A DNA stretch of 45,276 nt, from positions 1 to 45,276 of the IMG/VR virus record IMGVR_UViG_3300006162_000002; one strand, given 5' to 3'. A model generated the notes under the pieces. That model made no database searches, was not told the origin of the DNA, and saw only the letters and a program-made list of their open reading frames with translations. Within the stretch, counting starts at the first letter, position 1; every line of letters starts with the position of its first letter. Position numbers and translations under genes: made by a program. This DNA is from a virus. Of this stretch, positions 2,661-29,401 are shown piece after piece.

Positions 2661-3126
2661 GCGGCCTCAAACTTCGCTTTCGCGGTCAAGTCCTGAGATT
2701 GGTGCATCGCGTAGGAGTAGTAGCCTTTCCCGATGATCACGTGGTCGATGATCTCGATCCCCATCATGTGAGCGGAGGCGGCCAACCGGCGGGTCAAGAT
2801 CGTGTCGTCAGCGCTCGGGATCGTCGTCCCGCTCGGATGGTTGTGAGCGACGATCATGCGAGCGATCCCTTTCGCGACGGCCTCCTCAAGACCTGAGCGG
2901 GGTTCACGATGCAGGAGTCGACGTCTCCGCGGTGGACTAACTCCTGATAGACGACCTCGAGTTGAGTGTTCAGCCCGATCGCGACGAAGTTCTCGACGGG
3001 CTCATGGCTCATCCAATCCAAGTAAGATCGGACGGCATCGCCGGAGTTCAGGGACGGGGCCTTCTCGCGAACCATAGCGGGAGGATCCGTGGGGCGATAG
3101 TTGACGGGAGCAGTCTTCTTTCTCAT
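2657..3126 (-). pseudogene. RadC/JAB-domain protein, frameshifted
   Basis: The start MRKKTAPVNYRP follows AAGGAG at 4-bp spacing. The first frame (3126 to about 2890) carries the RadC-like strand order ending DSCIVNPAQV. The second frame carries IVAHNHPSG followed by PSADD, the JAMM metalloprotease signature HxH-x7-S-x2-D. The two halves join perfectly if one base is added in GTCTTGAGG near 2888-2894, where the expected reading is VLEEAVAKGIARM. No slippery heptamer is present, so this is a deletion (mutation or sequencing error) rather than programmed frameshifting. RadC-like JAB proteins are common in phages and mobile elements; their function is not settled. Confidence 0.75.
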
Positions 3127-3144
3127 CTTTCTCCTTACGACTAT

Positions 3145-3171
3145 AATATACCACACTCGGTACACAAAAAG
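3145..3171 (-). promoter_or_regulatory. Repeated block promoter, copy 1
   Basis: The minus strand reads CCGAGTGTGGTATATTATAG, identical to the other copies over the spacer and -10 (TATATT). The -35 region is diverged to a T-run because it is the U-tail of the hairpin at 3172-3201. It drives the RadC/JAB gene. Confidence 0.7.
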
Positions 3172-3201
3172 AATAGGCCCGGATCTCGATCCGGGCCTAT
3201 T
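3172..3201 (-). terminator. Terminator abutting promoter copy 1
   Basis: A perfect 14-bp inverted repeat AATAGGCCCGGATC/GATCCGGGCCTATT. On the minus strand it is followed by CTTTTTGTG. It terminates the 4065-3217 operon and is directly continuous with the next promoter. Confidence 0.85.
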
Positions 3202-3216
3202 GGGTGAGTCAGCTAC

Positions 3217-3435
3217 TTACCGGCGGTTTGTTTGTCGTCCGGAGTATCCGGGAGCGGAGACCCATGTCCCGGCGGCCTTCCGGTCGTCTTCCGTTCGCAG
3301 GTACACGGCCCAAGCGAGGACGTCCCGTTTCCGCGCGTCGGGTTCGTCCATCAACATCGATCCGAGGGTCTTAGCGTCGTGGCTTTCGGCTAACTTGGCG
3401 GCCGTCGAGCGTTCTCGAGCGTTGAGGTTAGTCAC
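3217..3435 (-). CDS. Unknown small protein (72 aa)
   Basis: A GTG start overlaps the end of the upstream gene by 8 bases and has an AGGG about 6 bases before it, so it is probably translationally coupled. The product MTNLNARERSTAAKLAESHD is charged and helical, with TEDDRKAAGTWVSAPGYSG near the C-terminus. It is the last gene of a three-gene operon that ends at the hairpin at 3172-3201. No family is recognised. Confidence 0.65.
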   Translation of the reverse strand: MTNLNARERSTAAKLAESHDAKTLGSMLMDEPDARKRDVLAWAVYLRTEDDRKAAGTWVSAPGYSGRQTNRR

Positions 3436-3793
3436 CGTCGTACCCTTGATCGATGAGATCTCTAGCGAACTTGACCGCGCTATCGCGATCTTGGTACCAA
3501 AAGGTGCTTACGGCTCCGTCCAAGTCGATTGCGATCACTTCATACCCTCCTTCGGGTCGACGTGACGGACACCAAGTACACCAGCGCTTAGGCGGGTCGG
3601 CGACGACTTCGAATCCCGCAACGGTCAGATCTCGAACGTACCTGACGTGGCCATAATACGGCCAACCGACCATTGGGTTCCCGTCGCGATCGGTCGTCAA
3701 CGTCAAGCGCAACGTTTTCGCGACGGCCTCGGCCTGATCTCCGCTGACTTCAAAGAAGTCGCCTTTTCTGATTGGTTGGATGGTGGTTTTCAC
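3428..3793 (-). CDS. Unknown protein (121 aa) with CxxC
   Basis: The GTG start lies 4 bases after AGGAGG and overlaps the upstream stop (GTGA). The product begins MKTTIQPIRKGDFFEVSGDQ. It contains the pair WCTWCPSRRPEGG near residue 75 and a segment AIDLDGAVSTFWYQDRDSAV resembling a small alpha/beta domain. There is no membrane segment. It is the middle gene of the 4065-3217 operon. No function can be assigned. Confidence 0.7.
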   Translation of the reverse strand: MKTTIQPIRKGDFFEVSGDQAEAVAKTLRLTLTTDRDGNPMVGWPYYGHVRYVRDLTVAGFEVVADPPKRWCTWCPSRRPEGGYEVIAIDLDGAVSTFWYQDRDSAVKFARDLIDQGYDGD

Positions 3794-4065
3794 TTTGCCT
3801 CCTGAGCGGTCAATCTGGTCAAGGGAGTCCCGCTTGGAGCGGTTCCGGGTTTGTCGCTGACGGAGCTCACGCAGACCATACCGATGAACTTGCCTCCCAA
3901 GGTTTCAACGTAACATTGGCCCATCGTGCCATTTTTGGGACATCCGTAGGGTTGAACGATCCGGACGACGGTCTCAGCCTCGAGACCCTTGGGGCCGTGG
4001 ATCAAGTCCATCAAACCCAACGGTCGGTAAACCCTGACGCTTCCGGTTCTCGGTGCTTTTCTCAT
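3790..4065 (-). CDS. Unknown small protein (91 aa)
   Basis: First gene of the operon under promoter copy 2. Start MRKAPRTGSVRVYRP; a GGAAGG lies upstream and a GTG two codons earlier is possible. The core LMDLIHGPKGLEAETVVRIVQP resembles the start of the 65-residue product at 4525-4722 (LMELLGWEKGN then KGLKAHAVVKI), suggesting the two are diverged paralogues within the same block. Two cysteines are present (YGCPKNG and MGQCYV). Function unknown. Confidence 0.7.
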   Translation of the reverse strand: MRKAPRTGSVRVYRPLGLMDLIHGPKGLEAETVVRIVQPYGCPKNGTMGQCYVETLGGKFIGMVCVSSVSDKPGTAPSGTPLTRLTAQEAK

Positions 4066-4096
4066 TTTCACTTTCCTTCCCTCTCGGGACATATAT

Positions 4097-4125
4097 AATG
4101 TACCACACTCGGTATAGAAAAGCAA
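4097..4125 (-). promoter_or_regulatory. Repeated block promoter, copy 2
   Basis: On the minus strand: -35 TTGCTT (4125-4120), 17-bp spacer, -10 TACATT (4102-4097). The spacer reads TTCTATACCGAGTGTGG, one base different from the other copies. The -35 overlaps the terminator tail at 4124-4154. Confidence 0.75.
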
Positions 4126-4154
4126 GAGGCCCGGGAAACTTTCCCGGGCCTCTT
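4124..4154 (-). terminator. Terminator abutting promoter copy 2
   Basis: A perfect 15-bp inverted repeat AAGAGGCCCGGGAAA/TTTCCCGGGCCTCTT with a single central base. On the minus strand it is followed by GCTTTTC. It ends the single-gene unit 4168-4434. Confidence 0.85.
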
Positions 4155-4167
4155 GGAATCGAATTGG

Positions 4168-4434
4168 TCAATCTGGGTCGGCTACTAGTCCCCGTCCTTG
4201 GTAGGTTAATTGTTGGTTGTATCCGGGATGGATATAGACCACTTGGGGATCGTGGTCGCCATAGTCCATGTCCATCACGAATTGAGAGACGAAGACATGA
4301 CCGTAGATCGCCGTGTACTCGACGCCGTGTCGTGGGTCGACCGTCCGAACAACGGCGGTCGGGGCTCCGTCGCTCGCCATTTTGTTTTCGATCGCTTCGG
4401 CGAGGGTTTTGTAGGTTTTCCGGTTTCGGATCAT
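4168..4434 (-). CDS. Unknown small protein (88 aa)
   Basis: Start MIRNRKTYKTLAEAIENKM, 10 bases after AAGGAG. It forms its own transcription unit between promoter copy 3 and the terminator at 4124-4154. The middle, PTAVVRTVDPRHGVEY, echoes the VVRIVQP segment of the 3790-4065 product, so common ancestry is possible. Acidic aromatic C-terminal half (MDMDYGDHDPQVVYIHPGY). No family recognised. Confidence 0.7.
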   Translation of the reverse strand: MIRNRKTYKTLAEAIENKMASDGAPTAVVRTVDPRHGVEYTAIYGHVFVSQFVMDMDYGDHDPQVVYIHPGYNQQLTYQGRGLVADPD

Positions 4435-4458
4435 CGTCTTGGTTCTCCTTACGTGCTT

Positions 4459-4487
4459 AATATACCACACTCGGAATAGAAAAGCAA
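4459..4487 (-). promoter_or_regulatory. Repeated block promoter, copy 3
   Basis: On the minus strand: -35 TTGCTT (4487-4482), 17-bp spacer TTCTATTCCGAGTGTGG, -10 TATATT (4464-4459). It drives the 4168-4434 gene. The -35 is part of the 3' arm of the hairpin at 4481-4517. Confidence 0.8.
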
Positions 4488-4517
4488 GGAGCAATAAAAA
4501 AGATTGCTCCTTGCTTT
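4481..4517 (-). terminator. Terminator whose 3' arm contains a -35 box
   Basis: A perfect 15-bp inverted repeat AAAGCAAGGAGCAAT/ATTGCTCCTTGCTTT with a 7-base loop. It ends the operon 5185-4525. Its minus-strand 3' arm includes TTGCTT, the -35 of promoter copy 3. Its stem differs in sequence from the neighbouring hairpins while the fusion to the promoter is the same. Confidence 0.85.
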
Positions 4518-4524
4518 CATGGTT

Positions 4525-4722
4525 TCAGCGTTCCCCAAGTACGTCGAGGCACTTGAGACACTTGGGCCAAGTCGGTTTGTATGTCAAATTGTCGTCACTG
4601 AGCACGACGAGCGCTTTCGGGTCGCGACACGCGGTTCTCCGCTTTCCGTTGATCTTGACGACGGCATGAGCCTTGAGGCCCTTGACCGAAGGGTTACCCT
4701 TTTCCCAACCGAGGAGCTCCAT
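4525..4722 (-). CDS. Unknown small protein (65 aa) with CxxC
   Basis: The ATG overlaps the upstream stop (TGATG), with GGGAGG just before it. The product MELLGWEKGNPSVKGL ends WPKCLKCLDVLGER, a CxxC pair that, with an earlier Cys (TACRDP), could bind zinc. It resembles the 3790-4065 product at its start. Third gene of the operon from promoter copy 4, ending at the hairpin at 4481-4517. Confidence 0.65.
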   Translation of the reverse strand: MELLGWEKGNPSVKGLKAHAVVKINGKRRTACRDPKALVVLSDDNLTYKPTWPKCLKCLDVLGER

Positions 4723-4964
4723 CAAACCCTCCCGTAGATCCGGTAAACCGATTGGTAGCGGGACACGAGACACGTCTTTTTCTCGACCACGTCGACCGAT
4801 TCGATGCACGTGACCTTGTCGCGGCCGAGTACTCGGTTGAGTGCCATGACCCAACGGCTAGCGGAGTCCCTCGAGACGCACGTGACGACGACTTGATGAC
4901 CGTAACACTCGATGCGCTTCTTGGGGATCGGGAGTTTCTTGAGCAGGGTTTCGAACTTTTCCAT
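4722..4964 (-). CDS. Unknown small protein (80 aa)
   Basis: Start MEKFETLLKKLPIPKKRIEC with AAGG about 6 bases upstream. Basic alternating segments such as GHQVVVTCVSRDSASRWV and KVTCIESVDVVEKKTCLVSR suggest a small alpha/beta fold with three or four cysteines. Middle gene of the three-gene operon and coupled by 1-base overlap to the next gene. No family recognised. Confidence 0.65.
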   Translation of the reverse strand: MEKFETLLKKLPIPKKRIECYGHQVVVTCVSRDSASRWVMALNRVLGRDKVTCIESVDVVEKKTCLVSRYQSVYRIYGRV

Positions 4965-4984
4965 AGCTTTTCCTTGGTGGTCGG

Positions 4985-5185
4985 TCAAACCATCTCTCCG
5001 TCTGGGATGAAGGTTTGAGGGAAAGGTCGGATCAGTCCCCTCTCGAGATCTGATCGGCTGATCATGTGCCAACCGTCGCTCCACTTCACACAATAGCCCG
5101 TCTCGGTGCCCTCGTGATAATGCAGGTTGTTCCTATCGAAAACGACCCTGAGAAGTTGGATCTCTTGGACTCGGCTCATCTTCAC
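4985..5185 (-). CDS. Unknown small protein (66 aa)
   Basis: The GTG start at 5185 is 8 bases from AAGGAG and is preferred; an ATG two codons later (5179) gives 14-base spacing. The product reads MKMSRVQEIQLLRVVFDRNN and then YCVKWSDGWHMISRSDLERG, a compact beta/alpha sequence with several aromatics. First gene after promoter copy 4. Function unknown. Confidence 0.65.
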   Translation of the reverse strand: MKMSRVQEIQLLRVVFDRNNLHYHEGTETGYCVKWSDGWHMISRSDLERGLIRPFPQTFIPDGEMV

Positions 5186-5217
5186 TTTGCTTTCTCCTTC
5201 CCTCTCGGGACAACTAT

Positions 5218-5246
5218 AATATACCACACTCGGAATAGAAAAGCAA
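5218..5246 (-). promoter_or_regulatory. Repeated block promoter, copy 4
   Basis: On the minus strand: -35 TTGCTT (5246-5241), 17-bp spacer TTCTATTCCGAGTGTGG, -10 TATATT (5223-5218). Drives the operon 5185-4525. The -35 and part of the spacer lie inside the long palindrome 5226-5294. Confidence 0.8.
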
Positions 5247-5294
5247 TAGGCCCGGGAAACTTTCCCGGGCCTATTGCTTTTCTATTCCGAGTGT
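5226..5294 (-). terminator. 69-bp perfect palindrome: terminator merged with promoter sequence
   Basis: Two 34-bp arms (5226-5259 and 5261-5294) are exact reverse complements around one central base. The inner part is the terminator stem also seen at 4124-4154 with one pair changed. The outer part is the promoter -35 and spacer, duplicated in inverted orientation without a -10. The outer end touches the stop codon of the 5294-5599 gene. Confidence 0.85.
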
Positions 5295-5599
5295 TAGGCG
5301 AACATGCCTATTCCTTCCAACTCGTAATCGCAGACCTCCTCGTATCCGCAATCAGCAGAACAGCCAATCACGTACCCGTAGGGGCCGTCTTCCAAGACTC
5401 TCATGGGAGTCGCGTCACCGTAATTCTCGGCGCAATCGGGGCAATAGCCCGCGTCGGCGATCTGGTCATAGAGCTCGGCGGAGATGTCATAGACCCTGTT
5501 CCCGGCCTTGGTTTCGATCCTAGGGGATCGCCGAACCTGATAGAGCAGACCTCCGCGACCCTTCATGATCTCAGTTTTCAGGTTCATTTTGCGTCTCAT
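5294..5599 (-). CDS. Putative zinc-binding small protein (101 aa)
   Basis: Start MRRKMNLKTEIMKGRGG, 9 bases after AAGGAG. The C-terminal half has paired cysteines CPDC near residue 54 and CSADC near residue 82, a four-cysteine zinc-ribbon arrangement, followed by the acidic end YEEVCDYELEGIGMFA. It forms a single-gene unit between promoter copy 5 and the 69-bp palindrome and is the first gene of the leftward block. Function unknown. Confidence 0.7.
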   Translation of the reverse strand: MRRKMNLKTEIMKGRGGLLYQVRRSPRIETKAGNRVYDISAELYDQIADAGYCPDCAENYGDATPMRVLEDGPYGYVIGCSADCGYEEVCDYELEGIGMFA

Positions 5600-5632
5600 T
5601 TTTTCTTTCTCCTTCCCTCTCGGGACAATTAT

Positions 5633-5661
5633 AATATACCACACTCGGAATAGAAAAGCAA
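5633..5661 (-). promoter_or_regulatory. Repeated block promoter, copy 5 (first of the block)
   Basis: On the minus strand: -35 TTGCTT (5661-5656), 17-bp spacer TTCTATTCCGAGTGTGG, -10 TATATT (5638-5633). Unlike copies 1-4 it has no terminator hairpin upstream, fitting the start of the leftward block. The 5662-5709 stretch lies between it and the rightward gene at 5710 and shows no strong plus-strand promoter. Confidence 0.75.
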
Positions 5662-5709
5662 GGTCAAGAAAAAAATGCGCTGAATTTTCTGAGGGTACGA
5701 TTCTCATCG

Positions 5710-7688: not shown

Positions 7689-9401
7689 GTGGGTTCTTTT
7701 TCGCTAGTCGTTCCATGCGCCGGACTGTTCAGGCATAACGAGCGACTATGGCCTCAAATAAAGTCGGCGATGCTCGACCACGACGTTGAGCTCCTCATCA
7801 TCAACGATAAGCCGTTCGCTCCGCGATTGCTCGCGCTCCTCGCCTCCCTCGATCTCCACTTCAAAGCGGTCAAGGCCTCGAGTAACCGGATCGGAGAGAT
7901 GATGGCGGTCGGAGTGTCGGCCGCGAGCAAGGAGACTTGTGTTTGGATGCACGACGACGTCGAGGTCGACCTCGATCTCCTGTTTAAGCTTGGTTCCAAA
8001 ATGGCGGCCGTCCCGATCGTGAAGGGGTCTCACAACCGAGACCAAGCAAGCGGAGGAACCTGGACAACGAGGCCGGTCGACCGTTGCATGATGGTCTTTG
8101 ACACCGAGACGGTCAAGAAACAGGCCGGTCGACTTTGCGGGTTTGAGATCGACGGGTACCAAGTCGCGGCTCAACGGATCCTCGCCGAGGCCGGGGTCTT
8201 TCCCGAGATCCTTCCGCTCATCGCGAGCCATGAAGGCTCGGCTACCCTTTGCAACGTTTCCGACCGTGATTACCAGGACGCTTTCAAGAGGGACATGGAG
8301 GCGCTCGCTCGAGTTTGCGGAGTCCACATGGAGCATGGCCAACGTCCGGCGATCTCGAGGATCCTGCCCTTCCCTCGAAAGGACGTCCATATCCTGAGCG
8401 GAGAGGTCGACCCGCTCGATGAGATCAACCAAGTCGACGCGAAGTCTTTCGTCTGGAAACGGGAAGTCTACGGCCGCGTGACGATGGGGGACAGTTATTC
8501 GATCCCTCCGCTCATGGACACCTACGTCATGGCACTCCCTGACGGGACGGGGATCGGTGACGCGATCATGCACGGTTCGGCCGTCGACCACTTCAAACGG
8601 CTCTATCCTCACATCAAGACAATCTGTTACATCGTCAAAGGCGGCCCGTCGGTCGTTTGTCAAAGGATGCCGTGTTTTGATCAAGTGGTCGAGCTCTATC
8701 AGACTCAGGAGATCCCGTCAAACGCTCGGACATGGAACATCGCGAACGGAGTCGAGGGGACGGCCGATCACGGGTTCTTTGAGCTCGGAATCGACAACAT
8801 CCCGATACAAGAGAGGATGCTCCCGGTCATCAAACCAGGAGGCGAAGACACATCCGACGACCTTGGGGACTTCGCGGTCGGGATCCAACTTAACGGAGGT
8901 TGGATCCATAAACGTTACTCCCGCGCGGACGAGCTCGCCGACCTCCTCCATCGAGAGGGTTTCCAACCGGTTTTCTTTTGTACCGACGACGGGATCCGGA
9001 GCGACCCTCGTTTTCCTCGGTACGGGGACGGCCCGCTCGATCGGTTCATGCACCAGATCAAGCGGCTCCGTTGCTGGGTCGGGTTTGACTCGGGAGCGAG
9101 TTACATCGCGAACGCGGTCGGAACCCCGTCGGTGTGGCTCTATGCGACTCACAACCCGTCCGGGCTGATCGGTTCTTGTGGAGCTCGGACTCCTTACCGG
9201 ACTATCTGGAAAGACCAACCTCCCCTATGCGCGGCAAGGTACCGGATGTCTTGCCGTCCGTTCGAAGGATGCGCGGTCGACCGACCTGACCGATGCTTTC
9301 ACCGGAACGGAGGCCCGGGAGCGAACTGTCTCGATGAGATTGAACCGACCGAGATCTTGAAACATGTGACAGAATTGACCGGCCATGCGACAATCGCCTA
9401 G
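7689..9401 (+). CDS. Two-domain glycosyltransferase (GT2-like plus GT9/heptosyltransferase-like)
   Basis: 570 residues from a GTG start 8 bases after AAGG. The N-terminal half (about 1-240) resembles a GT-A nucleotide-sugar enzyme, with VELLIINDKPFAPR and MHDDVEVDLDLL as the acidic metal site. The C-terminal half (about 275-570) resembles GT-B heptosyltransferases, with DGTGIGDAIMHGSA and GFDSGASYIANAVGTPSVW. It ends in a Cys-rich tail. It lies between head genes and overlaps the next gene by 17 bases, so it is expressed with the virion. Likely role: attaching sugar to a virion protein or host surface; the substrate is unknown. Confidence 0.75.
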   Translation: MGSFSLVVPCAGLFRHNERLWPQIKSAMLDHDVELLIINDKPFAPRLLALLASLDLHFKAVKASSNRIGEMMAVGVSAASKETCVWMHDDVEVDLDLLFKLGSKMAAVPIVKGSHNRDQASGGTWTTRPVDRCMMVFDTETVKKQAGRLCGFEIDGYQVAAQRILAEAGVFPEILPLIASHEGSATLCNVSDRDYQDAFKRDMEALARVCGVHMEHGQRPAISRILPFPRKDVHILSGEVDPLDEINQVDAKSFVWKREVYGRVTMGDSYSIPPLMDTYVMALPDGTGIGDAIMHGSAVDHFKRLYPHIKTICYIVKGGPSVVCQRMPCFDQVVELYQTQEIPSNARTWNIANGVEGTADHGFFELGIDNIPIQERMLPVIKPGGEDTSDDLGDFAVGIQLNGGWIHKRYSRADELADLLHREGFQPVFFCTDDGIRSDPRFPRYGDGPLDRFMHQIKRLRCWVGFDSGASYIANAVGTPSVWLYATHNPSGLIGSCGARTPYRTIWKDQPPLCAARYRMSCRPFEGCAVDRPDRCFHRNGGPGANCLDEIEPTEILKHVTELTGHATIA

Positions 9402-10243: not shown

Positions 10244-10924
10244 ATGTCCGCTCCATCGAAATACGGCTACTTTAGAGACCCTCACGATCCTCGAGACTTT
10301 CTTGTCGACGGGATCCCTTATGGCGCGGCCGAGTTACCTCCGCGCGTTTCCCGGTCAGCCTCGACCGGCCCAGTCTTTGACCAAGGTGACTCCTCCGAGT
10401 GTGTAGCCTATTCGGTCGCGGGACTCAAGCGTTACCAAGCTTGGTCAAAGGACAAACAATGGCCTAGCCTCGACGTCGACGGGTTCTACCAGGCCTGTAA
10501 GGCGGTCGACGGATCCCCTGACACTCAAGGGACTTTTCCTCGAGCCGCGATGCAAGTCCTCCAACAAACGGGGATCAAGGCGGCTGACGGGACTGTCTAT
10601 AAAATCGCCTCCTACTCGAGATGCGCGAGCGTCTCGGACATCAAGGTTTCTCTCGCGACCGAGGGGCCGGTCGTCGTCGGCCTCCACATTTACGACGTCG
10701 ATTGGAACAACCTCACCCCGGGATCCGTCATCCCCGTTCAAGTCCCTCCCCAAGCCGAAGGCCACTGTATCCTTTTTGTCGGATACGACGACCTCCTCGA
10801 GGCTTTCCAAGTCCGGAACTCGTGGGGAGCGGATTGGGGTGAAGACGGCCACTGTTGGATCCCGTACAACTACCTGACCCAGGTCGACCCCGACTTTGAC
10901 GCATGGACGGGAGTGGCCGCGTGA
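10244..10924 (+). CDS. Papain-like cysteine protease (peptidase C1)
   Basis: 226 residues with all C1 landmarks: oxyanion-hole Gln47 and nucleophile Cys53 in VFDQGDSSECVAYS, catalytic His174 in AEGHCILFVGYDD, and Asn192 in RNSWGADWGEDGHCW. No signal peptide; it begins with a short YFRDPHDPRDF prodomain-like stretch common to the family. It is first behind the strong promoter and precedes a membrane protein and the capsid protease/scaffold. Papain-type enzymes are rare in phages. It could mature virion proteins, act on host proteins or help lysis; the sequence does not say which. Confidence 0.85.
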   Translation: MSAPSKYGYFRDPHDPRDFLVDGIPYGAAELPPRVSRSASTGPVFDQGDSSECVAYSVAGLKRYQAWSKDKQWPSLDVDGFYQACKAVDGSPDTQGTFPRAAMQVLQQTGIKAADGTVYKIASYSRCASVSDIKVSLATEGPVVVGLHIYDVDWNNLTPGSVIPVQVPPQAEGHCILFVGYDDLLEAFQVRNSWGADWGEDGHCWIPYNYLTQVDPDFDAWTGVAA

Positions 10925-15740: not shown

Positions 15741-16568
15741 ATGTCAATCATTCAAGGCCGTTTAGGCAAAATCTCGATCGGAGGAACCGCTTACCCGTGT
15801 TACTCCTGGTCGATGTCCGCTCCCCGAAACCTCCAACCCGGAGCACCGGTCGGTAACACTTTTGCGACGAACATCGCCGAAGGACTCCAATCGACTCGGG
15901 TCGACGTCCAATTCATGTTCCGGACGAAGTCGACCGAGCTCCTTTCGCTTGCTTTTTGGAACCTTTGGATGTCGAGGACGTTCGGATCCGGGTTTGACGA
16001 CACGGCCGCGAACACGATCATCGGGACGTCTGGTCAGTCGACTTACACCCTCGCGAACTGTAAGGCGGAGTCGTTCTCGGTCTCGATCCGAAAGGGTCAA
16101 GAGATCGGAGTGAGAGGCACATTCCTTGCTCCGGCGCTCCCGACAAAGGCGGCCGCGAACACCGCGACGTCCTACCTCAACACGGTCGACTCGAGCGGAA
16201 AGATGATGTTTGACCAAGCGACGATCTCCGGGTTCACCGGCTCGGTCTACGGGTTAGACTTCGCTTATTCGAACAACCACCTCCCTAACGCTCCCCTCGA
16301 CGGGACAAAGTTCGTCGGCTATTGGGAGGCCGGTCAAATGGTCGCGAGCGCGTCGGCTACCGTCGCGGAGATCCCTTACGGTACCGACCCATGCGCCGAC
16401 GGGACGAACGTGACCGTCGCTATCGCCGGGGCGCGGACTTTCTCGCTGACCAGCATGAACGCGAACAACGAGAGAGACCTCACCGTCACTCCCGGACAGA
16501 CGTTCCAACCGCTCAACTTCATCGTCCTGGGTAACAACACCCCGACCGCTCCTTTGGTGATCACCTAA
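15741..16568 (+). CDS. Major tail tube protein
   Basis: 275 residues, MSIIQGRLGKISIGGTAYPC, immediately after the morphogenesis gene. The sequence is beta-rich throughout (STRVDVQFMFRTKSTELLSL, AESFSVSIRKGQEIGVRGTF), the composition of siphovirus tail tube subunits, and its position upstream of the tape measure agrees. The C-terminal third (VTVAIAGARTFSLTSMN) could be a surface-exposed Ig-like decoration. Confidence 0.65.
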   Translation: MSIIQGRLGKISIGGTAYPCYSWSMSAPRNLQPGAPVGNTFATNIAEGLQSTRVDVQFMFRTKSTELLSLAFWNLWMSRTFGSGFDDTAANTIIGTSGQSTYTLANCKAESFSVSIRKGQEIGVRGTFLAPALPTKAAANTATSYLNTVDSSGKMMFDQATISGFTGSVYGLDFAYSNNHLPNAPLDGTKFVGYWEAGQMVASASATVAEIPYGTDPCADGTNVTVAIAGARTFSLTSMNANNERDLTVTPGQTFQPLNFIVLGNNTPTAPLVIT

Positions 16569-22085: not shown

Positions 22086-22202
22086 AAGTATGGTTGGGGG
22101 TTGAGGATCGAACCGCGCTTGTCGTATCTCAAGCGACGGACGGATGATACCACCGACCTGAGTAAAATGTCGACGCCTTCAAACGAAGGCAGGTTAACCC
22201 CA

Positions 22203-22637
22203 ATGACTCCGTTCATGAACTGGACTGACCCTCTCGGGTCAGAACTCTCGACCGTGATCTACACCGTAGGAGGGCACGTCCTTCTCCGCCGGATCCCCGT
22301 CGATGAAAAGTCAACCGTAGAATCTGAGGCGACCGCGTTCCGAAACGAACAGCCGGACGCCGACCATATTCAACTCCCCGCCGTCGTCGCTTGGCTCGAG
22401 GGACTCAAATGCGTCCCCTCTCCGGACGTCACCGCGAAAGTCGTCGCTTTCGATTGGCCTAAGCCTGAGCCTGAGCCGGTCGCCGAACCCACTCCGAGGC
22501 CTCATACTGGGAACCTCGCCGAACTGACCGACCCGGAGCTCTTTACCCTCGCGACCGAGCTCGGAGTCTCGACCACCGGACTCACTCACGACCAAGTCGT
22601 GTCGGAGCTCCAAAAGACCATCAACGGAGGATCATGA
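22203..22637 (+). CDS. Unknown tail-region protein (144 aa)
   Basis: The ATG at 22203 is chosen over upstream in-frame codons because AAGG precedes it and the upstream part is hairpin and tRNA-like sequence. MTPFMNWTDPLGSELSTVIY; a Pro-rich hinge (KPEPEPVAEPTPRPH) links an N-terminal beta/alpha domain to a small helical C-terminus (LTDPELFTLATELGVSTTGL), the latter like a HeH/SAP-type two-helix motif. Function unknown. Confidence 0.65.
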   Translation: MTPFMNWTDPLGSELSTVIYTVGGHVLLRRIPVDEKSTVESEATAFRNEQPDADHIQLPAVVAWLEGLKCVPSPDVTAKVVAFDWPKPEPEPVAEPTPRPHTGNLAELTDPELFTLATELGVSTTGLTHDQVVSELQKTINGGS

Positions 22638-23200
22638 AACCCTATCTCGGCCTAATCGTCTTAGTCTGCTTGACCATCGAGGAGGCTCAATCGATCGGCG
22701 GAAACGCTAAGGCGGGAGACCTCGCTCCGGCGATCGTCACGGCCGTCTTTAGTGACACGACGGTCAACCTCAAGGTCATCGGCGACGGGTACGGTAATCC
22801 CGTTTGGATGACTTCGGTCGCTCAAGGAACCGGCCCGCGTTCTTGGCAATACCCTCAGTCTGTGGCTCCGGCCGCCGATGCGGGCACTTCTCCGGACTCA
22901 GCCGAAGAGAAGACTTATGGAGCAGGTTTGACCCTCTCCTCAGTCCTCGGAGGCGGCCCGTTGGTCGGGCTCTTGCTCCCCGTGATCAAGAGCATCGCGG
23001 AGTCCCAAGAGGGAGCGATCGACACGGCTATCGTCCGTGCGATGACGATCCCTCCGGCTGACATCCAAAACGTCCTCGCGACGGCCAAAATCACTGACGC
23101 GGCGACGATCTCGAGCATCGAGACTACGGTAGCTACCATCGAGACGGCGATCCAAACGCTCGCCAAGACCCTCATCAACGCGGCGATCACAAACCTCTGA
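22634..23200 (+). CDS. Unknown exported or membrane-associated virion protein (188 aa)
   Basis: ATGA overlap with the previous gene and a GGAGG 3 bases upstream. MKPYLGLIVLVCLTIEEAQS looks like a signal peptide or N-terminal membrane helix. Then an Ala/Thr/Val-rich body and a C-terminal run of helices (ITDAATISSIETTVATIETA) likely to coil. It lies immediately upstream of the radical SAM gene (1-base overlap) and is a candidate partner or substrate by position only. Confidence 0.6.
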   Translation: MKPYLGLIVLVCLTIEEAQSIGGNAKAGDLAPAIVTAVFSDTTVNLKVIGDGYGNPVWMTSVAQGTGPRSWQYPQSVAPAADAGTSPDSAEEKTYGAGLTLSSVLGGGPLVGLLLPVIKSIAESQEGAIDTAIVRAMTIPPADIQNVLATAKITDAATISSIETTVATIETAIQTLAKTLINAAITNL

Positions 23201-24957
23201 TGAGGTACGTTTTCCGTCCCCGGTCGGTGCATGTCCGGATCGCCGCGGGATGCAACCTAGGTTGTTTCTTCTGCGAAAGGGAAGCACTAGCCGGGGGCGG
23301 AAACGAAGGCCGGAAAAAGCGAGGGACGGTCGTTTTCACGGACGGCCGCGACGAGCTCCCGGTCGCTGATGACATGAGCCCTGAAACTTGGGCTCATGTC
23401 AAAGAGAAAGTCTTTCCTCACGTCGACCACGTCGAGCTAGGCGGTCTAGGTGAGCCAACCCTTGGCGCTATGTTCTGCCAAGCCGCGAAAGACGTCATAG
23501 AGGCCGGGAAAAGCCTCTTTTTCTTTACCAACGGACACTACCTCGACCTCCCTCGAGTTCTCGAATCAGTCGGAGAATCCCCTCATGTCTCGGTGTCGAT
23601 CGATGCCGGTACTCCCGAAGGCTACTCAAGGATGAGAAAGGGGAACCTCGCTCACTTGGTCAAGTCCGTCAAAGCTTTCAAGGCCGCCAAACCTGGATCC
23701 AAAGTCGACTCTCAGTTCACCGCGATGGCGAGCAACATCGAGGAGCTCGCTCCGTGGGTTGAACTTTGCGCCGAGCTCGGGATCGGACGGAAGGAGCATG
23801 GGGAACAACTCCTCATGGTTCCGGCCGACCACCACGTCACCGACCGGGTCGAGGAGTCGCTCCGGTTCCTCCGTGACAAGACTCTCGAGAACGTTGCGAA
23901 GGCGAGGATCGCGGCCGATGCCGCCGGGCTCAACCTCGTCGTTCAAATGCCGGAATTCTCGACGGCCAACCCGAACGCGATCATCGACAACACCGACCCG
24001 CGAAAGATCCGGAGATGGGCCGACATCATGTTCTACGGACTGTCTCCATGCGGAGGGACGTCTCCGAGGGGAACCACGGGGACTACGGGGCCTCATTTGA
24101 CATCGATCACCGCGGCGAGAGCATTTTGGGACTGGGTTGTCACGGCCGAGACCACGGTCACGAACCCTCCTTACTTGACCGTCCCCGGCGGGACGACGAC
24201 GGTTTATCAGACCTTCACGACGACACCCGCAACTTACTTCCCGACGACCACAAACTACGGTGGGATATTGAACGGTACGGCCGTCGCGGGGTTTGCACTT
24301 TCCAACCCTCCCGGAAGCGTGGCAAGCACGACGGCGACGACCGCGTTAGACCACACCACGACCTACACCGCAACGGGAGTAAACACTTTAGGTTATACGA
24401 CGACCCTGGTAGGGATCACCACGATCCAGCAAAACCAGACCAACACGACTTTTAACTACCCTCCTCAACTCACAGTACCAAACTACACTCACGGGAACGA
24501 CATCCTCTATAAAGTAAACGAAGTGCAATTCGCGGTTGAACAATACAACGGCACACAGCTTAATTACATAACTAATGTTTTCGTCACGACCGCGCTCGGG
24601 ATAACGACCACGGTCACCGACAATGTTTTCGTAACTCAACTTGTGGCCGCACTTGTCGACGTCGCGTTCGTGGTAGGGGAGGTCGACGTGATCGGGTACT
24701 CGGCAAAAAGGGTGCCTCCTCCTCCCGACGTCTCGGACGAGCCTCCCGAGTTCAAAGAAGTCCCCAAAGAGATGTATGTCGATTACGACGGTACGGCCTG
24801 GTCTTGCCTCGCGCGGCTCAAGATCGGAGACTTCAACGTCGACCCATGGGCCAAAATCGTTGACGACAACGCTAGCTATCAGCTTTTCCTCGCTAATTTT
24901 TACTATGTAAAGAGCGGAGACAATTCGAATTGTCGCGCATGTCCACGGAGAGACTAA
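23200..24957 (+). CDS. Radical SAM/SPASM-like enzyme with a Thr-rich insertion
   Basis: 585 residues. CNLGCFFC (Cys18, Cys22, Cys25) is the CX3CX2C motif that binds the [4Fe-4S] cluster, and VELGGLGEPTLG resembles the GGE-type SAM motif; the barrel runs to about residue 280. A twitch/SPASM-type cysteine set follows but is split. SPC (Cys284) lies before, and DYDGTAWSC (Cys536) and NCRACPRRD (Cys578, Cys581) lie after, a roughly 230-residue insertion rich in Thr, Asn, Val and Tyr (TTATTALDHTTTYTATG). Such enzymes modify peptides, sugars or RNA. The enzyme class is clear; substrate and the role of the insertion are unknown. Confidence 0.8.
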   Translation: MRYVFRPRSVHVRIAAGCNLGCFFCEREALAGGGNEGRKKRGTVVFTDGRDELPVADDMSPETWAHVKEKVFPHVDHVELGGLGEPTLGAMFCQAAKDVIEAGKSLFFFTNGHYLDLPRVLESVGESPHVSVSIDAGTPEGYSRMRKGNLAHLVKSVKAFKAAKPGSKVDSQFTAMASNIEELAPWVELCAELGIGRKEHGEQLLMVPADHHVTDRVEESLRFLRDKTLENVAKARIAADAAGLNLVVQMPEFSTANPNAIIDNTDPRKIRRWADIMFYGLSPCGGTSPRGTTGTTGPHLTSITAARAFWDWVVTAETTVTNPPYLTVPGGTTTVYQTFTTTPATYFPTTTNYGGILNGTAVAGFALSNPPGSVASTTATTALDHTTTYTATGVNTLGYTTTLVGITTIQQNQTNTTFNYPPQLTVPNYTHGNDILYKVNEVQFAVEQYNGTQLNYITNVFVTTALGITTTVTDNVFVTQLVAALVDVAFVVGEVDVIGYSAKRVPPPPDVSDEPPEFKEVPKEMYVDYDGTAWSCLARLKIGDFNVDPWAKIVDDNASYQLFLANFYYVKSGDNSNCRACPRRD

Positions 24958-27101
24958 TGAATATCAGGATCGTCATCCCAACACTCGACAAACCTTTTCT
25001 CTTAACTCAAACTTTGATGTCGCTCCGCGCGGAGATGAAGGACGGGGATTCTATCGTCTTGGTCGACAACGGCTCCGAACCCGAGACGCTTGGGGCGATC
25101 CGGGCCGACATCGACAACCCGAAAGCCAAAACGAGGATGATCGTCAACTCAGACCGCGGGAACTATTGCAAGTCGGTCAACATTGGGGTGAGCCATCCCG
25201 GAAACTATGACGCGCTCCTCGTGGTCAATAACGACGTCGTTTTCTCTCCCGGATCCCTCTCGAGGCTCAGGGAGTCCCTTTCAGATCAATGCGGGTTGGT
25301 GATCCCTCTCTCGAGCCGTTGCGTCGGTTCGCTGGGTGTCTCTCCTCCGGCCCTTGGAGATCCCTCTCGGGTCGAGGACATCTATGCCAACTATGAGAAA
25401 GTTTGCAAGTGGTGGAGGATCGCGTCGGTTCAGTTCTCCGGGATCCTCCCCGTTTCGGATCCCTACGTCCCTCAAGGCGGATATTGTTTCCTCATAGATC
25501 GGCGGTTATGGGATCGGCTCGGAGGCTTCGACCAGGATTACCGGATCTTCGGCGAAGACTACGACCTTTTCGCTCGGGCCGCTCGGTACACCAAGCTCTT
25601 TCAAGTCAGGGACGCCTATGTCCACCACCTCGAGCACCAGACGGTCAAAGAGATGCCGAGGCGGTTTGAAGAGTGGTGCCGGGGCAGGTTCCTCCTCACT
25701 GAGAAACGAGAAGGGAAACCCGAGACGGTCTCCGTCGTCATCCCGACCTATAACCGTTCCGACCTCCTTTTCGAAGCGATCGACTCGGTCGTCCGTCAGT
25801 CTTTCCAGGATTGGCGGCTCTATGTCGTTGACGACGGATCCGGAGATTGGGAGGCGATCCGCCAAGCGGCTACCAACCGGTTCTTTGACTACCAGGATCG
25901 TATCTGGTACTTCAACCTCGCGGACAACCGCGGGCCCGCGGCCGCGCGAAACTACGGGGTCTCCCTCTCACGCGGGAAGTACGTCGCTTTCCTCGACTCC
26001 GACGACACTTGGAACCCTGACCATCTCGCCAAGCATGTCGCATTTCACGAGTCGCGTCCCGGCCTTCTCATGAGCTACTCGAGGACGTCGTTCGCGTGGA
26101 GATGGAAAGATCCCGAGACCGGACGTTTCAGGTACCGGCCCGACGAACATCCCGAGGCTCAACTCCGCGGAGACCTTACGTTTGACCGTGACCGCCTCGA
26201 GAGAGAGAATTTCATCAAGACGTCGGCCGTCGTCGTTTGGGGAGACGTCGCGAGGTCGACCGAGTTCCCCGTCGAGGACGATCATCGCCTCGCGGCCGAG
26301 GACTGGAAATACTTCCGGATTTTAGCCGGGTTAAATGGAACGGTCGAACACCTCTATTCGACCACGGCCCGAACCTATTGGTCGAAGCGGTCCGACGGAG
26401 ACGCCCACCATTCTTCCCGACTTATTCCTTGGGCCAATTTTGGGGACGTCCCTGAACACTGGGGAGGCAGGATCCTCGCGTCACCAGGGAAAGACGGAGC
26501 CCTCACCGTCGTCATACCGACCCGCGAGAGGCCTCTCGAGGCCCGTACTCTCATGTCTAACCTCCCGGACGACGTTCCGGTCGTCCTTGTCGCCGACGGC
26601 CGCAAAAGCGCCGGTTACGTCCTCGAGCTCAGCCAAGCGAGGGAAGGGGTCGGGGCGGTCGTCATCGAGAAACCGAGCGGTGCGAGTTTCGCTCGGAACC
26701 GGGGAGTAGACCAATCCCTCACGGAATGGGTGTGGTTCATCGATGACGACGACATCCCGCTCCCCGGAGCGGTCGAGGCCGTCTCCAAATACTTCGGCCA
26801 GGCTGACGCCGTGGTCTGCCCTCTTTTCACCCATGCGGGAGACGGCGGCCTTTGTTTCACCGACGGCGCTTTCACGAGCGGGGTCTTTGTGAGGGTCGAT
26901 TTTTTCACTCGAGTCCATGGGTTTGACGAAGGCCTCCATATCGCCGAGGAGCGCGAGCTCCTCCAACGGATGAAGGACTTCGGAGCTCGCGTGGTCGAGT
27001 GTCCGACCCCGGTCGCGGTCAAAACCTCCGGGTCGAGGCATGTCGGCCATTTTGAGGCTCCGAAAACGCCCGGACGTCCTTTCCATGGAGGTTCGCGATG
27101 A
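24957..27101 (+). CDS. Three-domain family 2 glycosyltransferase
   Basis: 714 residues. The ATG at 24957 overlaps the radical SAM stop (TAATG) with GGAG before it. Three GT-A-like units in tandem: 1-255 (MNIRIVIPTLDKPF, LLVVNNDVVF), 265-500 (VSVVIPTYNRSDLLFEAID, FLDSDDTWNPDH) and 515-700 (LTVVIPTRERPLEARTLMS, FIDDDDIPLPG). Each has the nucleotide-sugar strand and an acidic DxD-type metal site; the first reads NND. Possibly builds a short oligosaccharide on one acceptor. It is sandwiched between the radical SAM gene and the tail hub gene. Confidence 0.85.
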   Translation: MNIRIVIPTLDKPFLLTQTLMSLRAEMKDGDSIVLVDNGSEPETLGAIRADIDNPKAKTRMIVNSDRGNYCKSVNIGVSHPGNYDALLVVNNDVVFSPGSLSRLRESLSDQCGLVIPLSSRCVGSLGVSPPALGDPSRVEDIYANYEKVCKWWRIASVQFSGILPVSDPYVPQGGYCFLIDRRLWDRLGGFDQDYRIFGEDYDLFARAARYTKLFQVRDAYVHHLEHQTVKEMPRRFEEWCRGRFLLTEKREGKPETVSVVIPTYNRSDLLFEAIDSVVRQSFQDWRLYVVDDGSGDWEAIRQAATNRFFDYQDRIWYFNLADNRGPAAARNYGVSLSRGKYVAFLDSDDTWNPDHLAKHVAFHESRPGLLMSYSRTSFAWRWKDPETGRFRYRPDEHPEAQLRGDLTFDRDRLERENFIKTSAVVVWGDVARSTEFPVEDDHRLAAEDWKYFRILAGLNGTVEHLYSTTARTYWSKRSDGDAHHSSRLIPWANFGDVPEHWGGRILASPGKDGALTVVIPTRERPLEARTLMSNLPDDVPVVLVADGRKSAGYVLELSQAREGVGAVVIEKPSGASFARNRGVDQSLTEWVWFIDDDDIPLPGAVEAVSKYFGQADAVVCPLFTHAGDGGLCFTDGAFTSGVFVRVDFFTRVHGFDEGLHIAEERELLQRMKDFGARVVECPTPVAVKTSGSRHVGHFEAPKTPGRPFHGGSR

Positions 27102-29401
27102 GGATCCAAGATTACGCTCAAGTTCAACTCCAAGACCCTCAATCACGGTGGACTTACGTCAAGCTCCCGCGGTTCGAGTACTCCGACTTCCCTTGGAACA
27201 ACACGGCCGCCGTGTGGGGATCCAACGTCGACTTTATTGCCGACTACAACCTTCAAGCGATCTACCCTAAGCCGGTCATGGTCTATCACGACCAGGCCGT
27301 AGGCTACGGGCTCGGGAGCGACTCGTCCCCTAATGTCAAATGGGCCAACGTCGGGACGGTGCCTTTCACTTTCAGGCAGAACACTCCCCACAACTTCACC
27401 GAGTTCGACCTCCAACTTTCGCCGTCGACGGCCGAGTCGTACTATCTCGACGCGACCGCGACTATCTCGGCTCAAGGAGTGACGTTCCTTTGGTCTCGCC
27501 TGGACCAGCAAGACCGCGACGTCTCAGACGGCGACTATGTCAAGTACACGACGTTCCGCGTCGGGATCGGGACAGGGTCGAACGTCGTCCTCTACTCGCT
27601 CCACTATGACGGAGGCGGCTCGGTCGTGATCTCGAGGTCGACCGACAACGGGACGACCTGGAAAGACCTCGAAAGTTTCCGCGACCAAGGGGACACAAAC
27701 GCTAGTTTCGGGCAAGCGGACGACCAGTACGACACGAGCGGGGTCGTCGGCCATGCGCCAAAGAACCCGATGAACTACCTCGAGTTCCGCCTCCTTGCCG
27801 GACGCCTCCAAATATGGGTCGGGAACAACGATGTCCCCTATGTGTTCGAGGAGAACCGGGTCGACAACACCGGAGCCCCGATCACCTTGATCAACTCCCT
27901 CGAGGTTCGCGCGTTCCGGTTCATCGCGCTTTCGTTTTCGGCTCATCCGACCAAGTGGAACGTCTCGTGCTCTTACGACTCGCCTGAGTTCACGATCGGG
28001 GACACTTACCCGGCCGGACTCGGGAGCTACTCCTTCACCACGGCCGGAGCGGTTCCTACGGGATGGAGCGCGACGATCAACCCGAGTACCTCGAGCCTTT
28101 CGGGGCCCGTCTGCTACTACCATCTTGACCTCACGGGGCCGACCAACGGAACCTATCGGTCGACTCCTTTCGCTGATCAATGCGTCTGCCTTAGAGCGGT
28201 CGACCTCGTTTGGCAAGCGGTGACGATGAGGAACACCAACCTACCGGTCGCGGTCTCTCCGGAGGAGGTTCATCTCCGTTGGGAGTTCAATCCCGACGAG
28301 CTCATCGTGACGACGTCCGGATCCTTGCTTTTCAACAACAACCGGCAAAGGATACTCCCGACCGGAGCCCTCGGCTATTGGGGGAATTGGTCGGTCAACT
28401 CAGGCCAAAACGCGGCCCTCGTCACGCTTGGCCGGTCTATCCCCGGCGGCCTGGTCGCTTTTCAACAAGCGTTCTCAGGATATGGCCACACGACCGGCGA
28501 AGTGATCGCGACCACGAACGGCTCGATGTTCAAGATGGGCCTCCGCGACCGCTTCATCCAAATGCAAAACCCTCGCTACGCGCTCCCGTGGATGGACGGT
28601 TGGAACGTGTTCTACGCGGCCGCCTACCTCGCTTCGCTTGGCCACTTCGACATCGCGGACATGTACTTCTCCTCCTTCGTCCCGGACGCTCCGTTCGGGC
28701 TAGGAACCGACCTCGGGAGTCCGGAGTCGCCTCATGCGTACTATCTCCCGGTCGGAGACGCCGGATCCGTGCTCACACGCAACACGGGAGTCTCACCCCT
28801 TCAAATCCTCGCGAAGATCGCTTTTTCGATCGGTTACTTCATCGCGGTCGACATCAACGGGAGCCTACGGTTCCAGAAGTTCATGACCCCGACGACCATT
28901 AAGAGGACTTTTTGGGAGTCAGACGTCGCCGGTGTCGTAGGATCCGGAACCGACCTCAACGGATGCGAGATTATGCAAATGACCAAGGATCTCCAACAAG
29001 TCCGGAATACGTCCGCGGTCATCGGGGTCAACGCCTACTCGCCTAAGTCTGAACCTATCGTCTTCAAATACGACGACCTCGACTCGGTCTATAACGTCAA
29101 CGCCTTCAACTTTTTGGGCTACCAACAGCAAGCGGTTTGGATGGACTCCCAGTTCGCGAGTCCCTCTTTCGCTCAGCAAGCGGCCCAACAAATGTACGCA
29201 GTACTCCGGGTTCCCGGGCTCGACGTCCCGATCAAAACAAATTGGATCCAACCGGACATTTTCCCTCTCGATGCGATCACCGTCTATTCCCCGCGGTTGG
29301 GCCTCGACACGTCGACCCGCTTGGTCGTCATGTCGGTCGAGCATCACGTGACCAAGTCTCACGCTTGGACGGAGTTGACCGGTCGGTTTATCGGGTTCTA
29401 A
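27098..29401 (+). CDS. Tail tip / hub protein with lectin-like N-terminal region (767 aa)
   Basis: ATGA overlap with the glycosyltransferase. The N-terminal 300 residues are beta-rich and Trp/Tyr/Asn-rich (VTFLWSRLDQQDRDVSDGDY, GRLQIWVGNNDVPYVFEE), like a concanavalin-type domain. The C-terminal part (DLQQVRNTSAVIGVNAYSPK, LVVMSVEHHVTKSHAWTELT) resembles baseplate-hub proteins of the lambda-J/Mu-P type. Last tail gene before the large terminase; likely the host-contact tip. Confidence 0.65.
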   Translation: MRIQDYAQVQLQDPQSRWTYVKLPRFEYSDFPWNNTAAVWGSNVDFIADYNLQAIYPKPVMVYHDQAVGYGLGSDSSPNVKWANVGTVPFTFRQNTPHNFTEFDLQLSPSTAESYYLDATATISAQGVTFLWSRLDQQDRDVSDGDYVKYTTFRVGIGTGSNVVLYSLHYDGGGSVVISRSTDNGTTWKDLESFRDQGDTNASFGQADDQYDTSGVVGHAPKNPMNYLEFRLLAGRLQIWVGNNDVPYVFEENRVDNTGAPITLINSLEVRAFRFIALSFSAHPTKWNVSCSYDSPEFTIGDTYPAGLGSYSFTTAGAVPTGWSATINPSTSSLSGPVCYYHLDLTGPTNGTYRSTPFADQCVCLRAVDLVWQAVTMRNTNLPVAVSPEEVHLRWEFNPDELIVTTSGSLLFNNNRQRILPTGALGYWGNWSVNSGQNAALVTLGRSIPGGLVAFQQAFSGYGHTTGEVIATTNGSMFKMGLRDRFIQMQNPRYALPWMDGWNVFYAAAYLASLGHFDIADMYFSSFVPDAPFGLGTDLGSPESPHAYYLPVGDAGSVLTRNTGVSPLQILAKIAFSIGYFIAVDINGSLRFQKFMTPTTIKRTFWESDVAGVVGSGTDLNGCEIMQMTKDLQQVRNTSAVIGVNAYSPKSEPIVFKYDDLDSVYNVNAFNFLGYQQQAVWMDSQFASPSFAQQAAQQMYAVLRVPGLDVPIKTNWIQPDIFPLDAITVYSPRLGLDTSTRLVVMSVEHHVTKSHAWTELTGRFIGF

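What the first reader, a model, noticed from the sequence alone, without database searches (positions are those of the whole stretch)
23200..24957. Radical SAM/SPASM enzyme interrupted by a Thr-rich insertion
The SAM-cluster motif CX3CX2C is intact, but the C-terminal cysteine set is split by about 230 residues of Thr/Asn/Val-rich sequence (about 24065-24770) that also looks more AT-rich than its surroundings toward its end. The insertion resembles fibre or surface sequence rather than enzyme. It could be a built-in substrate, a virion-binding domain or an inserted module. A radical SAM gene inside a tail operon, one base from a glycosyltransferase, has no standard role in phages.
Basis: partly seen in the sequence, partly recalled or inferred. 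Interest (0 to 1): 0.85.

Follow-up and report, generated by a model that had tools for sequence, protein, structure and literature searches.

The report
Phage radical-SAM enzyme with inserted loop
A virus of bacteria carries, among the genes for its particle and joined to a sugar-attaching enzyme gene, an iron-sulphur 'radical SAM' enzyme whose C-terminal metal-binding domain is split by about 230 threonine-rich residues of unknown origin; the enzyme looks intact, and what the extra piece does is open.

Summary
23200-24957 is one open frame (585 aa) with a CX3CX2C radical-SAM motif and four C-terminal cysteines; two other assemblies are identical where they cover it. Four refinements. (1) The cysteines fit a Twitch domain (one auxiliary cluster), not a seven-cysteine SPASM domain. 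(2) The extra sequence lies between the first auxiliary cysteine (C284) and the hairpin with GX4C (G531-C536): CX246GX4C, against 10-13 residues in 17 of 17 aligned cellular relatives. (3) A sister phage (flanks 49% and 46% identical) has 79 residues there, without detectable similarity to this insert: a lineage-specific expansion point. (4) The flanks model as one radical-SAM/Twitch-like fold (SkfB, Z 20.6); the insert cannot be modelled. It has no cysteine and no relative found outside this virus. The gene overlaps its neighbours by one base (TGATG, TAATG) among structural genes and precedes a three-domain GT2 glycosyltransferase; the sister phage adds GT9-like and methyltransferase genes. 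Best reading: an intact Twitch-type enzyme in a sugar or virion-modification step, the insert being a docking loop (inferred) or a neutral expansion. New variant of a known kind.

The parts
23200..24957 (+). radical-SAM/Twitch-type protein, 585 aa; ATG overlaps the upstream stop by one base (TGATG)
23251..23274 (+). C18-X3-C22-X2-C25 radical SAM cluster motif
   Evidence: invariant in 19 rows
24049..24051 (+). C284, first auxiliary-cluster cysteine, immediately before the insert
24058..24723 (+). Thr-rich, low-charge insert (about residues 287-508) between the first auxiliary cysteine and the Twitch hairpin; no cysteine in 287-505; exact ends uncertain by several residues
24790..24807 (+). G531-X4-C536, hairpin and second auxiliary cysteine
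24931..24942 (+). C578-X2-C581, third and fourth auxiliary cysteines
24957..27101 (+). three GT2 glycosyltransferase domains in one polypeptide; start overlaps the radical SAM stop (TAATG); 47% identical in the sister phage
22634..23200 (+). 188-aa unknown protein (partial phrog_19300 match), overlapping the radical SAM gene by one base
27098..29401 (+). 767-aa protein (tail component by position only), conserved in the sister phage next to the same cluster

Best explanation
The gene encodes an intact radical-SAM enzyme with a C-terminal Twitch-type domain (one SAM-cleaving [4Fe-4S] cluster plus one auxiliary cluster). About 230 residues have been added in the loop between the first auxiliary cysteine and the Twitch hairpin. 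Shown: the frame, the motifs, the exact insertion point, that the flanks model as one known fold, conservation of gene and neighbours in a sister phage, and overlapping gene ends within a run of structural genes. Inferred: it is made late, with the virion proteins, and works with the coupled triple GT2 glycosyltransferase (in the sister phage also a GT9-like protein and a methyltransferase) to make or modify a sugar, or a glycosylated residue, on a virion (tail) component. Inferred and weakest: the insert, next to the auxiliary cluster site, is a surface loop or small domain that positions the enzyme on its polymeric or virion substrate. My probabilities: anatomy about 0.9, sugar/virion-modification role about 0.4, docking role of the insert about 0.3.
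For: The four auxiliary cysteines and GX4C are invariant in 19 rows and the extra length falls between C284 and G531. AlphaFold2 gives block-mean pLDDT 80-98 for residues 61-210 and 75-94 for residues 511-570, the latter with the hairpin strands and two helices expected of a Twitch domain. VIA-align puts residues 2-574 on SkfB (PDB 6EFN, Z 20.6, rmsd 3.7, 264 aligned; tied with SuiB, Z 19.8), 5-580 on BlsE (Z 19.6) and 4-584 on DesII (Z 18.9); Foldseek ranks BlsE first and SkfB ninth. SkfB is a Twitch enzyme in which the cysteine before the hairpin lies about 12 A from the cluster (PMC6231123, passages read), so this stretch can vary. The sister phage G003 keeps gene, neighbours and expansion point with 49% and 46% identity in the flanks. 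It adds a GT9-like gene (21.4 bits, just under the cut-off of 22) and a Methyltransf_24 gene, and both phages have a GT9-domain protein in the head region. DesII acts on a sugar nucleotide and BlsE on a sugar-bearing nucleoside (recalled). A distant cellular relative (L024) is followed by DegT aminotransferase and formyltransferase genes.
Against: No substrate, product or virion modification is known. The stretches that carry C22/C25 (21-55), C284 (273-311) and C578/C581 (571-585) have pLDDT under 50, so neither cluster site is well modelled, and no PAE was available. Viperins, which lack a Twitch domain (recalled), align over a similar range with Z up to 19.5, so the range alone does not prove Twitch and the fold does not tell the reaction. 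Of the neighbours scanned in the two closest-scoring cellular loci, L005 and L006, the only Pfam match at E<=1e-5 was a second SPASM protein (6 proteins): no sugar genes there. Nothing shows that the insert binds anything; alone it gives pLDDT 32.8. N-glycosylation sequons are not enriched (5, against 3.7 in shuffles). Two phage lineages are too few to show selection on the insert.
Confidence: 0.45

Rival explanations
1. The insert is a tolerated, functionally neutral low-complexity expansion of a surface loop in an otherwise ordinary radical-SAM/Twitch enzyme.
For: Different length and no detectable similarity between the two phage inserts (spacing 79 against 246; Smith-Waterman 37 against 34 +/- 5 for shuffles, 291 of 1000 as high); block pLDDT 23-47 in the insert; Thr-rich make-up.
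Against: About 220 codons without a stop and with normal third-position GC; by eye, residues about 430-505 are less simple in composition. Both phage lineages expand the same spot, which 17 of 17 cellular relatives keep at 10-13 residues.
Confidence: 0.27
2. The enzyme and glycosyltransferases modify the host's surface polysaccharide (receptor masking or superinfection exclusion), not the virion.
For: Glycosyltransferases and radical-SAM cassettes occur in the host-recognition region of pelagimyophages, and the authors read the glycosyltransferases that way (PMC7029224, passages); GT2 and GT9 are common in polysaccharide synthesis (recalled).
Against: The genes lie in a run with 1- to 4-base overlaps from 22101 to 29401 that abuts TerL, with the radical SAM, GT2, 767-aa and TerL genes in the same order in the sister phage. 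No flippase or polymerase was found among the 14 window proteins scanned with Pfam; the rest were not scanned.
Confidence: 0.22
3. The insert is a built-in substrate: the enzyme, or the coupled glycosyltransferase, modifies its own Thr/Asn-rich segment in cis.
For: Thr 24%, low charge, attached beside the auxiliary-cluster site. Borosins, recalled to include enzyme-peptide fusions, are a known self-modifying kind (search listing only).
Against: No cysteine in the insert, so sactionine chemistry is unlikely; no shared motif between the two phage inserts beyond chance; no N-terminal leader-binding domain, since the SAM motif starts at residue 18.
Confidence: 0.08
4. Artefact or intervening element: an assembly join, an intein or an intron.
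For: Size of about 700 nt and abrupt change of composition.
Against: Gene without differences in two other assemblies wherever they cover it; no intein domain at E<=10; no Rfam hit at gathering thresholds; open frame and codon-like third-position GC; the sister phage also carries extra sequence at that point.
Confidence: 0.03

Closest known systems
SkfB (PDB 6EFN), sactipeptide maturase with Twitch domain
   Same: Radical-SAM barrel plus Twitch fold; top VIA-align match (Z 20.6, tied with SuiB) and only radical-SAM hit in the PDB profile search (E 1.5e-4)
   Different: SkfB has an N-terminal RRE (PMC6231123); here the SAM motif starts at residue 18 and about 230 residues are inserted. The exact spacing in SkfB was not measured here
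BtrN-type Twitch enzymes
   Same: Four auxiliary cysteines: one before the hairpin, one after it, two after the following helix (pattern from PMC6231123, passages)
   Different: CX246GX4C instead of CX9-15GX4C; substrate unknown
W_rSAM_matur (TIGR04317)
   Same: Best NCBIfam hit (54.7 bits). 17 of the 25 cellular loci found are from Geobacter, Desulfuromonad or other 'Deltaproteobacteria' records; whether these belong to TIGR04317 was not tested
   Different: Far under the family cut-off of 380 bits; 11 of the 17 aligned cellular rows have 54 residues between the second and third cysteines, here 41
Sister phage protein in IMGVR_UViG_3300048599_000747 (L004:6001-7248)
   Same: 49% and 46% identical flanks, same flanking genes, same expansion point
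   Different: 79 residues at that point; GT9-like and methyltransferase genes lie between it and the GT2 gene

Membership tests
Radical SAM superfamily (PF04055) | CX3CX2C motif and family score over cut-off | tested here: met
   C18/C22/C25 invariant in 19 rows; 40.4 bits against 29.5
Radical SAM superfamily (PF04055) | Reductive cleavage of SAM by a [4Fe-4S] cluster | not testable with these tools
   needs purified protein
SPASM domain | Seven-cysteine motif CX9-15GX4C-gap-CX2CX5CX3C-gap-C | tested here: not met
   From C284 on only four cysteines (C284, C536, C578, C581); PF13186 19.8 bits, under 21.5; motif from PMC6231123
Twitch domain | Cysteine before the hairpin, GX4C, then CX2C | tested here: met
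   C284, G531-X4-C536, C578-X2-C581, invariant in 19 rows
Twitch domain | First spacing of 9-15 residues | tested here: not met
   246 residues (sister phage 79); 10-13 in 17 of 17 cellular rows and in 30 of 30 control loci, 30 of 58 SPASM matches (the profile match favours normal spacing)
Twitch domain | Hairpin then helices after the barrel, aligning with a solved Twitch enzyme | tested here: met
   Strands 517-527, 532-535, 541-544 and helices 550-555, 558-569 at block pLDDT 75-94; residues 2-574 on SkfB, Z 20.6. Cysteine-bearing ends low confidence; no PAE; viperins align almost as well
Twitch domain | Binds one auxiliary Fe-S cluster | not testable with these tools
   needs EPR or Mossbauer
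Twitch domain-containing radical SAM protein (NF033640) | Score over the family cut-off | tested here: not met
   41.1 bits against 170
Tungsten cofactor oxidoreductase radical SAM maturase (TIGR04317) | Score over the equivalog cut-off | tested here: not met
   54.7 bits against 380
Viperin (NF038283 / pVip) | Score over the family cut-off | tested here: not met
   NF038283 15.1 bits against 180; PADLOC pVip partial match, 24.3 bits, no cut-off given
Sactipeptide maturase | N-terminal RRE peptide-binding domain | tested here: not met
   SAM motif starts at residue 18, leaving no room for one
Intein-bearing protein | Hint/intein domain in the insert | tested here: not met
   no Pfam match to the insert at E<=10

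The most novel reading that the evidence does not exclude
The Thr-rich insert is a working module: a substrate or virion-anchoring segment built into a radical-SAM/Twitch enzyme beside its auxiliary cluster, modified in cis by the enzyme or by the translationally coupled glycosyltransferase, so that the modified enzyme itself becomes part of, or docks on, the phage tail.
Probability: 0.08. Interest if true: 0.85.

Novelty: new variant of a known kind. Interest (0 to 1): 0.45.

Why it matters
Radical-SAM proteins are found in many phage sequences, but to my knowledge (recalled) their substrates there are mostly unknown. Here one is held, in two diverged phages, among the structural genes and beside glycosyltransferases, which points to a testable role in modifying the particle. 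The expansion between the first auxiliary cysteine and the hairpin, a spacing of 10-13 residues in all 17 cellular relatives aligned, suggests that the Twitch scaffold tolerates a large module next to its auxiliary cluster. Removing the insert would test what it does.

Tried and rejected
Assembly join: rejected (gene unchanged in two further assemblies wherever they cover it; these may come from related samples, which I could not check). Intein, intron or known RNA: nothing found. Hypervariable DGR-type repeat: no repeat of 35 nt or more touches the insert and no tandem repeats; within the gene only 12-15-nt pairs. Fibre homologue elsewhere in this or the sister phage: none above threshold (ORFs crossing the borders of the three sister pieces were not seen). 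Insert in phage records: none; in viral contigs only the two same-virus contigs. The trimeric-autotransporter hit (E 0.023; 0.085 with the whole protein) I take as composition bias. The insert alone, folded without an alignment, gave a meaningless model, so I searched no library with it; its fold is unknown, not shown to be new. More relatives: 8 viral scans found only two lineages; their first step uses a few short peptide patterns and can miss diverged ones. The sister protein found only weak hits in phage records (4 records, best E 7e-3), the window protein none at E<=0.001. A prophage search with the 767-aa protein in 294 genomes of one phylum found nothing and had no positive control. A tree of 19 rows joins the two phages (99/99), but several cellular branches are very long, so no donor is named. 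Viperin and tungsten-cofactor maturase assignments: NCBIfam scores far under cut-off; PADLOC's pVip match is partial.

Full report
What is there. The window is a phage record of 45,276 bases with a perfect 110-base terminal repeat. The named gene, 23200-24957, is a single frame of 585 aa. Its ATG overlaps the preceding stop by one base (TGATG), and its own stop overlaps the ATG of a glycosyltransferase with three GT2 domains (TAATG at 24957). By ORF coordinates the run of genes from 22101 to 29401 has 1- to 4-base overlaps and abuts the large terminase gene at 29402. The radical-SAM domain scores 40.4 bits over a cut-off of 29.5; the SPASM profile scores 19.8 bits and is matched only from its sixth position.

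Where the insert sits. I aligned the protein with the sister phage protein (L004) and 17 cellular relatives, 17 of the 25 that one genome scan returned. Invariant columns include C18, C22, C25, G84-E85-P86, C284, G531, C536, C578 and C581. Between C284 and G531 there are 246 residues here, 79 in the sister phage and 10-13 in all 17 cellular rows; the later spacings (4, 41, 2) are the same in the two phages. As a control, 30 of 58 SPASM matches in ten genomes were given loci; all 30 have 10-13 residues, with the caveat that a profile match favours normal spacing. Published work defines SPASM by seven cysteines beginning CX9-15GX4C, and Twitch as a truncated form with one auxiliary cluster; in BtrN four cysteines bind it (PMC6231123, passages read). 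The protein therefore meets the Twitch cysteine order, fails its first spacing, and fails SPASM.

Is it real sequence? There is no stop in frame, against 13 and 5 stops in the other forward frames. Third-position GC is 0.67, near that of the flanks (0.70 and 0.61), while first-position GC falls to 0.47. The 99.97% and 99.99% identical contigs 3300027898_000036 and 3300006052_000331 show no difference in the gene where they cover it. They may stem from related samples.

Does the enzyme still fold? AlphaFold2 on the 19-row alignment gave block means of 80-98 for residues 61-210 and 75-94 for residues 511-570, but 23-47 across the insert; residues 21-55, 273-311 and 571-585, which carry five of the seven motif cysteines (C22, C25, C284, C578, C581), are under 50. 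VIA-align placed the model on SkfB (residues 2-574, Z 20.6, tied with SuiB at 19.8), BlsE, DesII, PqqE, anSME and also viperins (Z about 18-20); Foldseek put BlsE first and SkfB ninth. So the flanks fit one barrel-plus-Twitch-like fold, but the cluster sites are not modelled in detail, no PAE was at hand, and the viperin matches show that the range alone is not proof of Twitch. The insert alone, single sequence, gave pLDDT 32.8.

What the insert is. Residues 287-505 are 24% Thr with no cysteine and 15 residues of K, R, D or E in 219. There is no Pfam match at E<=10, no phage-record match at E<=1, and no similarity to another ORF of this phage or the sister above phmmer's inclusion threshold. 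The two phage inserts do not resemble each other beyond chance (score 37 against 34 +/- 5 shuffled, 291 of 1000 as high). N-glycosylation sequons are not enriched (5 against 3.7). I read the site as an expansion point in this phage group; the origin of the insert is unknown.

Surroundings. In the sister phage (IMGVR_UViG_3300048599_000747) 19 forward ORFs between 5710 and 30907 of this window find a collinear relative, while the ORFs at 16568, 16969, 18272 and 22634 do not. The radical SAM N-terminal flank (49%) and the GT2 protein (47%) are at the top of the identities of these forward ORFs, with the C-terminal flank (46%) level with the best of the rest. Both phages share a papain-like protease and, in the head region, a GT9-domain protein whose GT2-like start is seen only in the sister and under its cut-off. 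Between the radical SAM and GT2 genes the sister phage has a GT9-like gene (21.4 bits, just under its cut-off of 22) and a Methyltransf_24 gene that this window lacks at that place. This favours a sugar-related pathway carried within the structural genes. Against it, the neighbours scanned in the two closest-scoring cellular loci (6 proteins of L005 and L006) gave no sugar genes, only a second SPASM protein; L024, a distant relative, does sit beside sugar-type genes; neighbours of the Geobacter-type loci were not examined. Virion glycosylation is described for mycobacteriophages (Freeman et al. 2023, seen only as a reference in PMC11256854).

Literature. Seven paper searches listed no title that describes a radical-SAM enzyme with such an insert; the list was cut (15 of 16, 10 of 14, 8 of 13). 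Apart from passages of PMC6231123, PMC7029224, PMC5332604 and PMC11256854 I saw only listings, and most subscription papers are not in the library, so this is weak evidence of absence.

Mechanism. Shown: sequence, motif order, insertion point, fold of the flanks as modelled, conserved context. Inferred: late co-expression and a joint role with the glycosyltransferase in modifying a virion component. Speculative: the insert as docking loop or cis substrate. The strongest fact against every functional reading of the insert is that the two phage inserts differ in length and sequence.

Verdict. A true and unusual variant of a Twitch-type radical-SAM enzyme. The enzyme class is known, its presence in phages is not rare, and the insert's function is open.

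Noticed in passing
1-110 and 45167-45276: Perfect 110-base terminal direct repeat, suggesting that the record is a complete genome.
   Followed up: partly
3113-5691: Four to five diverged repeats sharing a TAATATACCACACTCGG-like core, some followed by G+C-rich hairpins; perhaps repeated promoter/terminator units.
   Followed up: no
7689-9401: 570-aa protein with a GT9 domain placed among head genes; its relative in the sister phage (35% identical) also has a weak GT2 match at its start.
   Followed up: partly
10244-10924: Papain-family (C1) cysteine protease between head genes, 45% identical in the sister phage; possibly a prohead-type protease.
   Followed up: no
1414-2220: GH25 lysozyme on the minus strand.
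   Followed up: no
L004:7248-8554: GT9-like and methyltransferase genes between the radical SAM and GT2 genes in the sister phage, absent at that place in the window.
   Followed up: partly
41380-41415 and 41631-41666: Inverted repeat of 36 bases, 86% complementary, 215 bases apart.
   Followed up: no
L074:2540-6942: Vibrio phage K566 carries three annotated radical SAM genes within about 4.4 kb.
   Followed up: no
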